Source: a virus. From it: a DNA stretch of 24,126 nucleotides. The stretch lies in the IMG/VR virus record IMGVR_UViG_3300046011_004380, positions 1-24,126 of that record; one strand, written 5' to 3'. The notes under the pieces are model-generated. The model was not told the DNA's origin. It searched no databases and saw only the letters and a list, made by a program, of their open reading frames with translations. The position numbers and the translations under genes were made by a program. Positions 9,309-13,970 of this stretch are shown here, one piece after another. The first letter of the stretch is position 1. Each line of letters begins with the position of its first letter.

Positions 9309-9328
9309 TAATTATATAATATTTTATC
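9309..9328 (+). promoter_or_regulatory. conserved 20-base leader, copy 1
   Basis: The sequence TAATTATATAATATTTTATC sits directly before the ATG of the scaffold-like gene. The identical 20 bases directly precede the ATG at 12090, and with the ATG the identity runs 23 bases. There is no Shine-Dalgarno. The core TATAATATTTTA could be a promoter -10/-7 element with a very short leader, or a translation-enhancing leader of the Bacteroidota type. Exact repetition at the same distance from two starts is direct evidence of function; which function is inference. Confidence 0.6.
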
Positions 9329-10489
9329 ATGTCAGAACAAATTAAACAAGAAGGAGACTTTAAAATTAAAAAAGCTAAAGTTCCTACTATTAAACATGTA
9401 TCAGCTCAGTCTGTTGCAAAAGTAGATTTAACAAATAAACCCGTAGAAGATGCCGTTCAAGAGCAAACAACAGATGAAGGCGTGTTACAGCCAGGACAAC
9501 CCGAAATGGGATTGCAAGAAGTGGTCGAAGGAAACTCCGAACAAAAAATCATTACCGAACCGGTTGATGAGAAAGAAGTAGTTGTAGTTAATATTACAGA
9601 AACTACTGAAGAAGCAAAAGAACTTGAGGCGGAAGCTGATAAAGCAATTAATGATTTTAAAGTATCAGGTAAACCATTGCCGGAGAATATTGAAAAGTTA
9701 ATTACTTTTATGGAAGAAACAGGAGGAGACATTGAAGATTATACTCGTTTAAATACGGATTATTCTAAATTGAATCCAGAAGTTCTATTAAAAGAATATT
9801 ACAAGAAAACAAAACCGCATTTAGATTTAGATGAGATTGACTTTCACATGGAAGAAACATTCTCGTATGATGAAGATGAGGATGACGAGCGAGAAATTAA
9901 AAAGAAACGTATCGCTTTCAAAGAAGAGGTTGGTAAAGCCAAAAGCTTTCTAGAGGATCTTAAGAGTAAATATTATGATGAAATTAAATTAAAGTCTAAT
10001 GTAAACCCAGATCAACAAAAAGCAATTGATTTTTTCAATCGATACAAAGAAGATCAACAATCAGTTGAGCAAATGCATTCAGCATTTAAAGATAATACCA
10101 AAAAGTTTTTTACACAGGATTTCAAAGGTTTTGATTTCAACGCGGGTGGAAAAACATTCAGGTTTAATCTACAAAATACTGACGCTGTTGCGGATAAACA
10201 ATCAAACATTACTAACCTACTTAAGAAGTTCTTAAATGAAAAAGGTGAAGTAACAGATATGACTGGGTATCATAAAGCAATGTATGCTGCTGAAAACACT
10301 GACAGTATTGCAAACCATTTTTACGAACAAGGTAAAGCTGACGCTATTAAAGAGATGTTAGCCAAATCAAACAATATTTCAACAGAACCTAGACAAACAT
10401 CTGCTGGTGAAATTAACGTGAATGGTTTTAAAGTAAGAGCTATCAATGGTGTTGATTCTTCAAAATTAAGAATTAAGAGTAAATTTTAA
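9329..10489 (+). CDS. scaffolding-like head assembly protein
   Basis: A 386-residue protein between portal and major capsid protein, the usual place of a scaffold. The first 150 residues are very acidic and low-complexity (VQEQTTDEGVLQPGQPEMG, then TEEAKELEAEADKAINDF). The middle is charged and helical (EDEDDEREIKKKRIAFKEEV). The C-terminal quarter is more structured, with FKGFDFNAGGKTFRFNL and a helical ADAIKEMLAKSNN, ending in the basic segment SSKLRIKSKF. Scaffolds commonly carry a basic C-terminal capsid-binding tail, which this end could be. There is no Ser/His protease motif, so a fused prohead protease is unlikely. It follows one of the two identical 20-base leaders. It may alternatively be a retained internal structural protein. 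Confidence 0.65.
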   Translation: MSEQIKQEGDFKIKKAKVPTIKHVSAQSVAKVDLTNKPVEDAVQEQTTDEGVLQPGQPEMGLQEVVEGNSEQKIITEPVDEKEVVVVNITETTEEAKELEAEADKAINDFKVSGKPLPENIEKLITFMEETGGDIEDYTRLNTDYSKLNPEVLLKEYYKKTKPHLDLDEIDFHMEETFSYDEDEDDEREIKKKRIAFKEEVGKAKSFLEDLKSKYYDEIKLKSNVNPDQQKAIDFFNRYKEDQQSVEQMHSAFKDNTKKFFTQDFKGFDFNAGGKTFRFNLQNTDAVADKQSNITNLLKKFLNEKGEVTDMTGYHKAMYAAENTDSIANHFYEQGKADAIKEMLAKSNNISTEPRQTSAGEINVNGFKVRAINGVDSSKLRIKSKF

Positions 10490-10506: not shown

Positions 10507-11997
10507 ATGGCAACAGTAAATGTTACCCCGAACTTCGGTTCGATTAAGCCGTCACAAAAGCAACAAGCTTTAGACACAAATTATTTAAACTTTACGGATC
10601 CAAGTAATGCGGATTTCGTATCATTTGCACAACAATATTTACCAGAAGTTTACGAAGCTGAGGTAGAGCGTTATGGAAACAGAACATTATCTGGTTTCTT
10701 GCGTATGGTTGGCGCTGAAATGCCAATGTCTTCTGACCAAGTTATCTGGTCTGAACAAAACAGATTACACGTTGCATATACTGGAGTTAACGTAAAAAGC
10801 GCTGTAGGTAATACATTAGAGATTGAATCTACTGTAGCAACGCCTGGAGTAAGCCCTGCTAATTATGTAGCTAACGTTATTTCAAAAAACCAAACGATTG
10901 TTATTATGAATCCTGCAACAGGATTAGAGGTTAAAGCTATTGTTATTACTTCTGGAGCGAATGATACTTCTTCTAACGCTGCAAATGGAGCATTAACTGT
11001 TGCTCCTTATACTGCCGTTTCTTTAGCTGCTGCTGGATTTTCTGATACCGACGATAATTTAAAAATCTTCGTTTATGGTTCTGAATACAAAAAAGGTTCT
11101 ACTTTAACAGGTGATGACTACACTAGTATTGAGCCTTCATTTACTCAGTTTAATAACTCTCCAGTAATTATCCGTAACAAATATGCTGTTAATGGATCTG
11201 ATACTGCACAAATCGGATGGGTAGAAATTGCTACTGAAGATGGAGCTGATGGTTACTACTGGTACTTAAAAGCTGAATCTGAAACAAGATTACGTTTTGA
11301 AGACTATTTAGAAATGACAGTTGTAGAGGGTGAATTAGCTGCTGCAGGATCTGCTGCATTAGCCGCTGGTAAAAAAGGTACACAAGGTTTATTTGCTGCT
11401 GTTGAAGACAGAGGAAATATCTTAAATAACTTTAGTCCAGTTGGTGGTTTAGGTTCTTTCGATAATATCTTGAAAAACTTAGATACTCAAGGAGCGATTG
11501 AAGAGAATATGTTATTCTTAAATCGTCAATTATCTTTAGATTTTGATGATATGTTAGCTGGTTTATCTGCTGGTTCAGCAGGTGGGGTTGCTTACGGTTT
11601 ATTTGAAAACTCATCTGAGATGGCATTAAACTTAGGTTTCTCTGGATTCAGAAGAGGTTCTTATGACTTCTACAAAACTGACTGGAAATACTTAAACGAT
11701 GCTTCAACTCGTGGAGCAATGACAGGTGTTGGTAGTTCAATCGAAGGTGTATTAATTCCTGCTGGAACTTCTACAGTTTACGATCAAATTTTAGGAACTA
11801 ACATCCGCAGACCATTCTTACACGTTCGTTATAGAGCTGCACAAGCTGATGACCGTAGAATGAAATCTTGGATCACTGGATCTGTTGGAGGTGCTTACAC
11901 ATCTGACTTAGATGCAATGGAGGTACACTTCTTATCTGAAAGATGTTTATGTGTGCAAGGTGCTAATAACTTCGTGTTATTCACTGCTTCAGCATAA
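10507..11997 (+). CDS. major capsid protein (HK97-fold candidate)
   Basis: A 496-residue protein downstream of the portal and scaffold genes. An N-terminal arm-like segment (residues 1-45) leads into helical EVYEAEVERYGNRTLSGFLR and GAEMPMSSDQVIWSE, as in HK97-type capsid proteins. A beta-rich insertion of roughly residues 95-230 (Gly/Ala/Thr/Asn-rich, AIVITSGANDTSSNAANGAL) could protrude from the capsomer. The C-terminal half has DDMLAGLSAGSAGGVAYGLF and the P-loop-like ALNLGFSGFRRGSYDFYK, then EVHFLSERCLCVQGANNFVL at the end, which is the conserved final strand. Codon use differs from its neighbours: about nine of nineteen Arg codons are CGT/CGC and AAC, TTC and TAC are frequent, whereas neighbours rely on AGA, AAT, TTT and TAT. 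This fits very high expression. A terminator follows at 12015-12048. Confidence 0.88.
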   Translation: MATVNVTPNFGSIKPSQKQQALDTNYLNFTDPSNADFVSFAQQYLPEVYEAEVERYGNRTLSGFLRMVGAEMPMSSDQVIWSEQNRLHVAYTGVNVKSAVGNTLEIESTVATPGVSPANYVANVISKNQTIVIMNPATGLEVKAIVITSGANDTSSNAANGALTVAPYTAVSLAAAGFSDTDDNLKIFVYGSEYKKGSTLTGDDYTSIEPSFTQFNNSPVIIRNKYAVNGSDTAQIGWVEIATEDGADGYYWYLKAESETRLRFEDYLEMTVVEGELAAAGSAALAAGKKGTQGLFAAVEDRGNILNNFSPVGGLGSFDNILKNLDTQGAIEENMLFLNRQLSLDFDDMLAGLSAGSAGGVAYGLFENSSEMALNLGFSGFRRGSYDFYKTDWKYLNDASTRGAMTGVGSSIEGVLIPAGTSTVYDQILGTNIRRPFLHVRYRAAQADDRRMKSWITGSVGGAYTSDLDAMEVHFLSERCLCVQGANNFVLFTASA

Positions 11998-12014
11998 GCA
12001 TAAATAATTGTAAA

Positions 12015-12048
12015 TTTTACCCTCGTTGAATCTACGGGGGTAATTTTT
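12015..12048 (+). terminator. intrinsic terminator after the capsid gene
   Basis: A ten-base-pair stem, TTACCCTCGT (12017-12026) with ACGGGGGTAA (12034-12043), including one T-G wobble, closes a seven-base loop (12027-12033). A run of five T follows (12044-12048) and then TCTTTT nearby. It lies 17 bases after the major capsid protein stop and before a copy of the conserved leader. It is the clearest rho-independent terminator in the window and would separate or attenuate capsid transcripts from the downstream genes. Confidence 0.85.
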
Positions 12049-12069
12049 ACTCTTTTAATAAACAATAAT

Positions 12070-12089
12070 TAATTATATAATATTTTATC
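12070..12089 (+). promoter_or_regulatory. conserved 20-base leader, copy 2
   Basis: The sequence TAATTATATAATATTTTATC again ends exactly at the ATG (12090), identical to the copy at 9309-9328. It follows the capsid terminator, so a promoter here would restart transcription for the head-tail genes. If it acts only at translation, the downstream genes would depend on terminator read-through. Confidence 0.65.
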
Positions 12090-12977
12090 ATGGCACAAGC
12101 TAAAACTGCTGCTAAAGCAAAAACTATTCAACCAAGTACATACGTTGAACCAGAAAATACATTTGAACAATTTGAACAAAGTGTTGAAGAAACCTATATT
12201 GAAGAACCAGTTGCTAAAACAAAACCGCAACCTTCAGCCCCTAAATGGGAAATTAAAGATAGAACATATATTTTAGCGGGACCACACTCCCCTTTAACAT
12301 ATACTATTTCTTCAAGACATACAAGTAGATTTCCTTTATTATGGTTTGACAAAGATAATGGTGATCAAAAAGAATTAAGATATGCTACGAACCAAAACTC
12401 TGTTTTTGTAGAAGATCAAAAAGGAGAATCAACCTTGGGACATATCATATTTAAAAACGGTACTTTATTTGTACCAAAAGAAAAACAAAACTTACAAAAA
12501 CTATTATCATTATATCACCCAGACTTAAACAAGAAATACAGAGAGTTTGATCCTGTTATTACTGCTGGAGATGATTTAGATGATATGGATATACAATTAG
12601 ATGCAATGAATGCAGCAAGAGAAATGGATATTGATCAAGCTGAAGCAATATTAAGGGTTGAGATTGGATCTAAAGTTTCTAAAATGACTTCTAAAGAAAT
12701 TAAAAGAGACTTAATGTTATTTGCTAGAAACAATCCAGATTTATTTATTGATTTAGCAAATGATGAAAACGTACAGCTTAGAAATGTAGCTATTAGGGCT
12801 GTTGAAGCGGGTATCGTAACTTTATCACAAGATCAACGCACATTCTTATGGACATCGAACAATAGAAAATTAATGACTGTACCATTTGATGAAAACCCAT
12901 ACTCAGCTATGGCAGCATTCTTCAAAACAGATGAAGGTATAGAAGTTTTTAGGTCTATAGAGAAAAAAATAGATTAA
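12090..12977 (+). CDS. structural protein downstream of the capsid gene (head accessory or connector candidate)
   Basis: A 295-residue protein of unknown family. Residues 1-50 are low-complexity (Ala/Lys/Gln/Glu/Pro-rich: AKTAAKAKTIQPSTYVEPEN), followed by a beta-rich stretch (DRTYILAGPHSPLTYTISS to GTLFVPKEKQN, about 55-150). After an acidic linker (GDDLDDMDIQLDAMNAARE, about 165-185) the C-terminal 100 residues are helical: EIKRDLMLFARNNPDLFIDL, then ENVQLRNVAIRAVEAGIVTL and a small hairpin RTFLWTSNNRKLMTVPF. The last segment (ENPYSAMAAFFKTDEGIEVF) recalls a winged-helix-like module found in other phage structural proteins. Position after the capsid protein suggests a head decoration, fibre-anchor or packaged protein. 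It begins with the repeated 20-base leader. Confidence 0.6.
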   Translation: MAQAKTAAKAKTIQPSTYVEPENTFEQFEQSVEETYIEEPVAKTKPQPSAPKWEIKDRTYILAGPHSPLTYTISSRHTSRFPLLWFDKDNGDQKELRYATNQNSVFVEDQKGESTLGHIIFKNGTLFVPKEKQNLQKLLSLYHPDLNKKYREFDPVITAGDDLDDMDIQLDAMNAAREMDIDQAEAILRVEIGSKVSKMTSKEIKRDLMLFARNNPDLFIDLANDENVQLRNVAIRAVEAGIVTLSQDQRTFLWTSNNRKLMTVPFDENPYSAMAAFFKTDEGIEVFRSIEKKID

Positions 12978-12988
12978 CACGTAATATT

Positions 12989-13029
12989 AATATATAGAGC
13001 GGTGGCTTAACGGTTACCGCTTATATATT
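12989..13029 (+). promoter_or_regulatory. long hairpin between head-tail genes (D-arm-like)
   Basis: AATATATA (12989-12996) pairs perfectly with TATATATT (13022-13029), and AGCGGT (12998-13003) with ACCGCT (13016-13021), leaving one bulged G at 12997. The top may extend by two G-T wobbles and a C-G pair around TTAACG. It lies in the 69-base gap between two structural genes and ends 17 bases before the next ATG. There is no T run, so it is a weak terminator at best. It may be an RNA processing or translation-control element. The loop sequence TGGCTTAACGG resembles a tRNA D-arm, but no T arm follows. Confidence 0.6.
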
Positions 13030-13046: not shown

Positions 13047-13970
13047 ATGGCAATAAACGTAGATACAGTTTACAAAACCGTTTTATTAATACTTAACAAA
13101 GAGCAACGTGGTTACATGACTCCTGATGAGTTTAATAAAATAGCAACTCAAGTTCAACTTGAAATATTCGAGGATTATTTTAATAATCTTAATCAACAAT
13201 TAAGAGTACCGGATAATGACAGTGAATATGCTGATAGGATTAAAAATTTAGATGAGCAATTAGCTGTATTTAAAACTATAGGTAATTGTACTTATGTAGG
13301 TAATAGCGAATGGGAATTACCGACGTCGTCAGGCATGGCTGTATATTCTTATAGCTTTACTACGGTTAATGGTCAATCTGAATATCCGCTTGGTAATCAA
13401 TTAAATCAAGCAACAATACAAAATGGTTTGATGAAAGTTTATTTTGGAGGAGTTTTACAAAATCCATCTGCGTATTCTACAGCAAATAACAATATAATAT
13501 TAAGTTCTATACCAACAACCGCTTTTAGTGTGCTTGTTACGGTTACTGCTAATGACTTTTACAGATTAGGTACTGTGATATATGACGATACAATTGAGAT
13601 GCAGAGAGTGCAACGAAACAATTTGTTATATATAAATAAATCACCTTTAACAAAACCGACAAAAAAATACCCACTATATATATACGAAGAAGAAAAACTA
13701 TACGTATATCCAAATACAATAACAACAGGTGTAACTGCTTCATTTGTACGTAAACCAAAAGATGTTATATGGAACTTTACAGCAACTGCTCCTTATTATA
13801 CATATTCGTATAGCCCTAATACTTCGCAACAATTTGAATTAATGGTTTCTGAACAAACAAATGTTATAACAAAAATATTGTTATATTCAGGTGTTGTTAT
13901 TAAAGATCCACAAATAATTCAAGTTGCAGCACAGCAAATACAAAACGAAAACATAAATTCAAAATCATAA
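13047..13970 (+). CDS. head-tail connector / ring protein candidate (A)
   Basis: A 307-residue protein. It starts with a helical region (VDTVYKTVLLILNKEQRGYM, then PDEFNKIATQVQLEIFEDYF, about 3-50). A beta-sandwich-like insert follows at about 105-175 (NGLMKVYFGGVLQNPSAYS, then NNNIILSSIPTTAF and VLVTVTAND), a common phage virion module. The rest (DDTIEMQRVQRNNLLYINKS, KYPLYIYEEEKLYVYPN, ASFVRKPKDVIWNF) resembles ring or connector proteins that stack under the portal in short-tailed phages. The next gene encodes a second protein with a similar insert. Family membership is inferred from order and general shape. The leader ATAAAATAAGCAAA precedes the ATG. Confidence 0.6.
   Translation: MAINVDTVYKTVLLILNKEQRGYMTPDEFNKIATQVQLEIFEDYFNNLNQQLRVPDNDSEYADRIKNLDEQLAVFKTIGNCTYVGNSEWELPTSSGMAVYSYSFTTVNGQSEYPLGNQLNQATIQNGLMKVYFGGVLQNPSAYSTANNNIILSSIPTTAFSVLVTVTANDFYRLGTVIYDDTIEMQRVQRNNLLYINKSPLTKPTKKYPLYIYEEEKLYVYPNTITTGVTASFVRKPKDVIWNFTATAPYYTYSYSPNTSQQFELMVSEQTNVITKILLYSGVVIKDPQIIQVAAQQIQNENINSKS

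What the first reader, a model, noticed from the sequence alone, without database searches (positions are those of the whole stretch)
9309..9331. Identical 20-base leader plus ATG before two separate genes
TAATTATATAATATTTTATC ends exactly at the start codon at both 9329 and 12090, while the surrounding genes have unrelated leaders. One copy is before the scaffold-like gene, the other follows the capsid terminator. Perfect identity at identical spacing implies selection: a late promoter with nearly leaderless transcript, or a translational control site that balances scaffold and head-accessory protein levels.
Basis: seen in the sequence. Interest (0 to 1): 0.6.

Follow-up and report, generated by a model that had tools for sequence, protein, structure and literature searches.

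The report
Conserved start-site element in marine phages
In a large group of uncultured marine phages the same 20-letter DNA switch sits directly against the start of two genes on either side of the coat-protein gene; it is most likely a promoter read with the help of a sigma factor these phages encode, so that the message starts at the gene itself.

Summary
TAATTATATAATATTTTATC abuts the ATG at 9329 and at 12090. The reversed sequence has 3 hits; 257 Gb of bacterial genomes gave 13, the only one before an ATG being a phage contig. In 19 phage records chosen without reference to the motif, a family consensus (TAATTWTATWATATTWTATY|ATG) occurs at exactly these two genes. These phages form one clade (98/97 support, window inside) and encode a sigma-70-type factor. 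Sister phages, where no sigma was found, carry the Bacteroidota box TAnnTTTG about 23-29 nt before the scaffold-like gene instead (59/68). The second copy follows a hairpin terminator. Best reading: a phage-sigma-dependent late promoter whose transcript starts at or within a few bases of the AUG. The sigma link and the leaderless start are inferred; a translation-level element remains the main rival. By-product: the clade has a separate early-strand promoter-like family (TTTACAAAC-N-AAATACGA-N10-GATAATA).

The parts
9309..9328 (+). Element, copy 1 (TAATTATATAATATTTTATC), touching the ATG of the scaffold-like gene
9329..10489 (+). Scaffold-like gene (386 aa, between portal and capsid; role inferred from position only)
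10507..11997 (+). Capsid gene (496 aa, phrog_13704 virion structural protein); A-rich leader, no element
12010..12050 (+). Hairpin with U-rich tail after the capsid gene, probable intrinsic terminator
   Evidence: same feature in 17 relatives
12070..12089 (+). Element, copy 2, identical, touching the ATG of the post-capsid gene
12090..12977 (+). Post-capsid gene (295 aa, unknown function; phrog_34748)
12979..12994 (+). Candidate promoter of another late-strand family (ACGTAATATTAATATA) upstream of a hairpin and the next gene (13047)
   Evidence: weak, 18 non-coding late-strand sites against 3 early-strand

Best explanation
The element is a late promoter private to one clade of uncultured podophages related to Bacteroidota phages. 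It is read by the host RNA polymerase carrying a phage-encoded sigma-70-family factor made from the early strand. The AT-rich stretch supplies a -10-like box (TAATAT at -12 to -7 in this window) and an easily melted discriminator, with no conserved -35 box. Transcription starts at or within a few bases of the A of the ATG, which explains the fixed zero spacing, and the (nearly) leaderless message is translated without a Shine-Dalgarno sequence. Copy 1 starts the scaffold-capsid unit, which ends at the hairpin after the capsid gene; copy 2 restarts transcription for the post-capsid gene. SHOWN: the conservation, the restriction to two genes, the sigma gene in the clade, TAnnTTTG at the scaffold position in the sister clade, the hairpin. 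INFERRED: that it is a promoter, that this sigma reads it, the start point, the late timing.
For: 124/124 exact occurrences touch an ATG. 19/19 sigma-selected records have the element at both genes; matrix scan finds essentially only these sites, Markov control 0. Sister clade: TAnnTTTG before the scaffold-like gene in 59/68, element 0/68, sigma 0/18 long records. Sigma gene; absent in six named relatives. Hairpin before copy 2 in the window and 17 relatives; portal-to-scaffold gap of 20-33 nt leaves room for little else. With +1 at the A of ATG, A-8 and T-7 hold in all listed sites and T-12 in all but one. T4 late promoters have the same plan: TATA-type box, AT-rich DNA below it, no -35 (PMC2988020).
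Against: No 5' end has been mapped. Conservation extends to -1, more than a -10 box needs. No single canonical TATAAT sits at one distance in all variants. Gain of sigma and element is one event on the tree, so the association is not replicated. The sigma could instead read the early-strand or YGTAATANTA sites. Only two such sites per genome is few for a general late promoter. The window itself is a fragment without the early region, so its own sigma gene is not seen.
Confidence: 0.6

Rival explanations
1. It acts in RNA: a conserved translation-initiation or translational-control element (ribosome contact, or binding of a phage regulator) that sets synthesis of the scaffold-like and post-capsid proteins; the promoter lies elsewhere.
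For: Zero spacing to ATG in every case and conservation up to -1; A at -3 is a positive determinant of Bacteroidota initiation (PMC6847099); only two genes carry it.
Against: Relatives have a promoter box, not a leader motif, at the scaffold position; copy 2 lies behind a terminator and needs a promoter nearby; leaders of the other genes are A-rich, not T-rich.
Confidence: 0.22
2. It is a promoter, but read by the host's own sigma (or with another phage activator), not by the phage sigma, which serves other sites such as the early-strand family.
For: TAnnTTTG is not enriched anywhere in this clade (19 sense, 56 antisense), so the host may have another promoter type; the early-strand family carries conserved upstream boxes that a sigma region 4 or an activator could contact.
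Against: The sigma lies on the early strand, 6 nt downstream of an early-type site in one genome, which suits an early product acting later; the element was not seen in host genomes.
Confidence: 0.15
3. The two copies in this window are only a recent duplication or recombination, without function.
For: The window and its closest relatives have identical copies where most relatives have two variants, so one site may have been converted to the other's version.
Against: Flanks differ, identity stops at the ATG, and the 20-mer persists across lineages whose flanks and proteins have diverged.
Confidence: 0.01

Closest known systems
T4-type late promoter and gp55 sigma (PMC2988020)
   Same: AT-rich -10-type box, AT-rich DNA below it, no conserved -35, small phage-encoded sigma-70-family protein, late virion genes
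   Different: Only two strict sites per genome, fixed zero distance to the ATG, longer conserved sequence; this sigma also has a weak region 4 match in the same chain; no gp33 or clamp requirement shown
Bacteroidota sigma-A promoter (TAnnTTTG, -12 to -5; PMC9723704)
   Same: Occupies the same place before the scaffold-like gene in the sister clade
   Different: The element has no TTTG and lies against the ATG instead of 23-29 nt before it
Leaderless promoters of bacteria
   Same: -10-like sequence placed so that the transcript could begin at the start codon
   Different: Nearly the whole 20 bp is fixed and phage-specific; the start point is not mapped
T7-type phage promoters
   Same: About 20 bp of contiguous conserved sequence
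   Different: No single-subunit RNA polymerase was found in these phages

Membership tests
T4-type late promoter system | Phage-encoded sigma-70-family protein | tested here: met
   (in clade members; window is a fragment)
T4-type late promoter system | -10-type TATA box without conserved -35 box | tested here: met
   AT-rich element conserved from -20 to -1; scaffold-site columns above -21 carry little information; box is TAATAT or TTATAT, not the T4 8-mer
T4-type late promoter system | Many late promoters of one consensus across the genome (about 50 in T4) | tested here: not met
   Two strict sites per genome
T4-type late promoter system | Late transcription dependent on sigma, gp33-like co-activator and sliding clamp | not testable with these tools
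   Needs infection or in vitro work
Bacteroidota sigma-A promoter | TAnnTTTG box | tested here: not met
   Absent from the element
Leaderless promoter | Transcript 5' end at the start codon | not testable with these tools
   Spacing compatible; no RNA data
T7-type single-subunit polymerase promoter | Phage single-subunit RNA polymerase | tested here: inconclusive
   PF00940 found in none of 18 records, but the tool's own control did not ring; none among scanned proteins
Rfam cis-regulatory RNA | Match to a known RNA family | tested here: not met
   No match at gathering thresholds

The most novel reading that the evidence does not exclude
A dedicated two-gene control element fused to the start codon, restricted to the two genes flanking the capsid gene, through which a phage sigma with regions 2 and 4 in one chain (possibly tied to replication by its conserved C-terminal tail) starts leaderless late messages, in phages that have given up host-type promoters for both early and late genes.
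Probability: 0.2. Interest if true: 0.75.

Novelty: new variant of a known kind. Interest (0 to 1): 0.58.

Why it matters
If true, it outlines the transcription programme of a widespread uncultured phage clade: an early-strand promoter family, a phage sigma, and a late promoter recognisable by eye, next to a sister clade that kept host-type promoters. It would be a natural experiment in how a phage moves from host promoters to its own, a case of leaderless expression of key virion genes, and a 20-bp signature for finding these phages in metagenomes.

Tried and rejected
Chance or simple repeat: rejected. Host-sequence origin: rejected; 12 of the 13 bacterial-genome hits are not next to an ATG and the other is a phage contig. 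Known RNA family: none in Rfam. Virion RNA polymerase in the ~3000-aa virion protein: the scanned part has only AAA/zeta-type kinase-like domains. Within-genome co-evolution of the two copies: not significant, permutation p=0.125. Use of the element at other genes: none seen; the post-type 19-mer has 103 occurrences, of which 100 gave testable proteins, 90 post-capsid and 10 scaffold-like. Literature: no description of this element or of promoters in these phages was found in the searches made of the held library; absence there is not proof.

Full report
OBSERVATION. The 20-mer TAATTATATAATATTTTATC is present exactly at 9309-9328 and 12070-12089, each touching an ATG that opens a long ORF. No third copy exists in the window with up to 3 mismatches; dinucleotide shuffles gave 0.05 matches on average and never two. 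Other leaders in the window share at most 10 nt with each other, and shuffled leaders never shared more than 16.

CONTEXT. The window is a 24 kb virus record, a fragment. Gene order is terminase large subunit, portal, scaffold-like gene, capsid, post-capsid gene, two virion genes and a large virion protein. The scaffold-like and post-capsid genes have no functional annotation; a model of the post-capsid protein resembles uncharacterised proteins of Gundel_1, phi14:2 and crAss-like phages. Named relatives are Flavobacterium elemo phages, Cellulophaga phi38:1 and phi13:2 types, Maribacter Panino and Tenacibaculum Gundel_1.

THE ELEMENT IS WIDELY CONSERVED. Together with the two loci made from the window itself these hold 124 occurrences, and all 124 are followed immediately by ATG; the proteins begin like this window's scaffold-like protein or, for second copies, its post-capsid protein, while the upstream 25 nt differ between lineages. 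The same sequence read backwards has 3 hits. In 257 Gb of bacterial and archaeal genomes there are 13 hits; 12 are not before an ATG and the other is a phage contig with the same gene order. A post-capsid-type 19-mer that includes the ATG occurs 103 times in the examined loci; of 100 testable proteins 90 are post-capsid homologues and the remaining 10 are scaffold-like.

UNBIASED TEST. I selected records by a sigma gene (below), not by the motif. All 19 have an ATG-abutting AT-rich element at both genes. Ungapped identity over the last 20 nt is 0.72-0.92 against 0.28-0.37 upstream of -30. A weight matrix from these sites, run over both strands of the 20 sequences, gave 40 hits: 38 are the two known sites, one is the post-capsid gene at the other end of a record, one is unexplained; a Markov control gave 0. 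The matrix was trained on the same sites, so this shows restriction to two genes rather than independent discovery. The consensus is TAATTWTATWATATTWTATY|ATG. The capsid gene between the two copies has only an A-rich leader.

A PHAGE SIGMA. A 61.6 kb record with the exact element encodes a 251-aa protein matching phrog_351 RNA polymerase sigma factor (E=1e-20) and, weakly, Pfam sigma-70 regions 2 and 4. A profile of 20 relatives matches solved sigma factors to E=4e-9, mainly over region 2; an AlphaFold model (pLDDT 77) matches SigA chains (Foldseek E=3e-6, low global TM-score). At least 136 IMG/VR stretches encode close relatives. It is absent at useful scores from six named relatives (one E=0.02 fragment in phi13:2 was disregarded). 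Several motif-bearing records of 22-44 kb show no sigma hit; they are fragments, so this is uninformative.

WHAT SITS THERE IN RELATIVES. Among 80 capsid-selected relatives closest to MW202828, the scaffold-like gene has the Bacteroidota box TAnnTTTG, typically 23-29 nt before the ATG, in 59 of 68 and the element in 0 of 68; the post-capsid gene mostly shows neither motif (1 weak element in 72). Eighteen long records of that group have no sigma hit (the tool notes that an empty answer lacks an internal positive, though one search shows that a sigma query does ring in this collection). In elemoA, phi38:1 and Panino TAnnTTTG-type boxes are seen before the scaffold-like gene and, in part, the post-capsid and next genes. 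A capsid tree puts the window and all sigma-bearing records on one side of a branch (98/97), so gain of sigma and element counts as one event.

HOW IT MOST LIKELY WORKS. The portal-to-scaffold gap is 20-33 nt in all 20 sequences, so the element fills it; behind the capsid gene a -19 to -25 kcal/mol hairpin precedes the second element in the window and in all 17 other genomes folded. A promoter is therefore expected where the element lies. If the A of ATG is +1, the window has TAATAT at -12 to -7 and TTTATC as discriminator; A-8 and T-7 hold in all sites listed and T-12 in all but one (G058 post). T4 late promoters likewise have a TATA-type box, AT-rich DNA downstream and no -35 (PMC2988020). 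F. psychrophilum sigma-A boxes lie at -12 to -5, and 5.5% of the mRNAs examined there are leaderless (PMC9723704). The start point and the sigma assignment are inference.

LIMITS. Conservation up to -1 exceeds what a -10 box needs and would suit an RNA-level element too; A at -3 is a known positive determinant of Bacteroidota initiation (PMC6847099). The sigma might read other sites: on the early strand I found TTTACAAAC-N-AAATACGA-N10-GATAATA (135 early-strand hits against 1 late-strand, 0 in six named relatives; matrix trained on these genomes), and on the late strand YGTAATANTA (18 non-coding sites against 3 early). Early and late here mean gene strand and content, not measured timing. TAnnTTTG is not enriched upstream of genes in this clade (19 sense, 56 antisense) but is in the six named relatives (73 against 31) (sums of the listed counts), so the host and its promoter type are uncertain.

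VERDICT. A real, strongly conserved, two-site element; most likely a late promoter with a near-leaderless transcript read by a phage sigma (0.6), with translational control as the main rival (0.22).

Noticed in passing
L135-L145 and L256-L314, early strand; not in the window: A promoter-like family TTTACAAAC-N-AAATACGA-N10-GATAATA, up to about a dozen per genome, almost only on the early strand and absent from six named relatives.
   Followed up: partly
L137:16228-16983 (-) and homologues in alignment A2: Phage sigma with an almost invariant C-terminal tail (SQV[IL]DYL). T4 gp55 ends in a clamp-binding epitope, so a link to replication is conceivable; pure speculation (PMC2988020).
   Followed up: no
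window 12979-12994 and homologous sites before the next gene in relatives: A further late-strand motif, YGTAATANTA, upstream of a hairpin in front of the gene at 13047 and before some other late genes.
   Followed up: partly
19 sigma-bearing records against six named relatives: The Bacteroidota box TAnnTTTG is under-represented on the sense strand upstream of genes in the sigma-bearing clade and enriched in the sigma-less phages; the host's promoter type is open.
   Followed up: partly
L144:1-7934 (-): Part of a ~3000-aa virion protein holding an AAA/zeta-toxin-like kinase domain, with no polymerase domain.
   Followed up: no
window 12070-12089 against L026, L098 and G050: In the window's lineage the post-capsid copy carries the scaffold-type sequence, while most relatives, including the nearest capsid relative G050, carry a distinct post-type variant.
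   Followed up: partly
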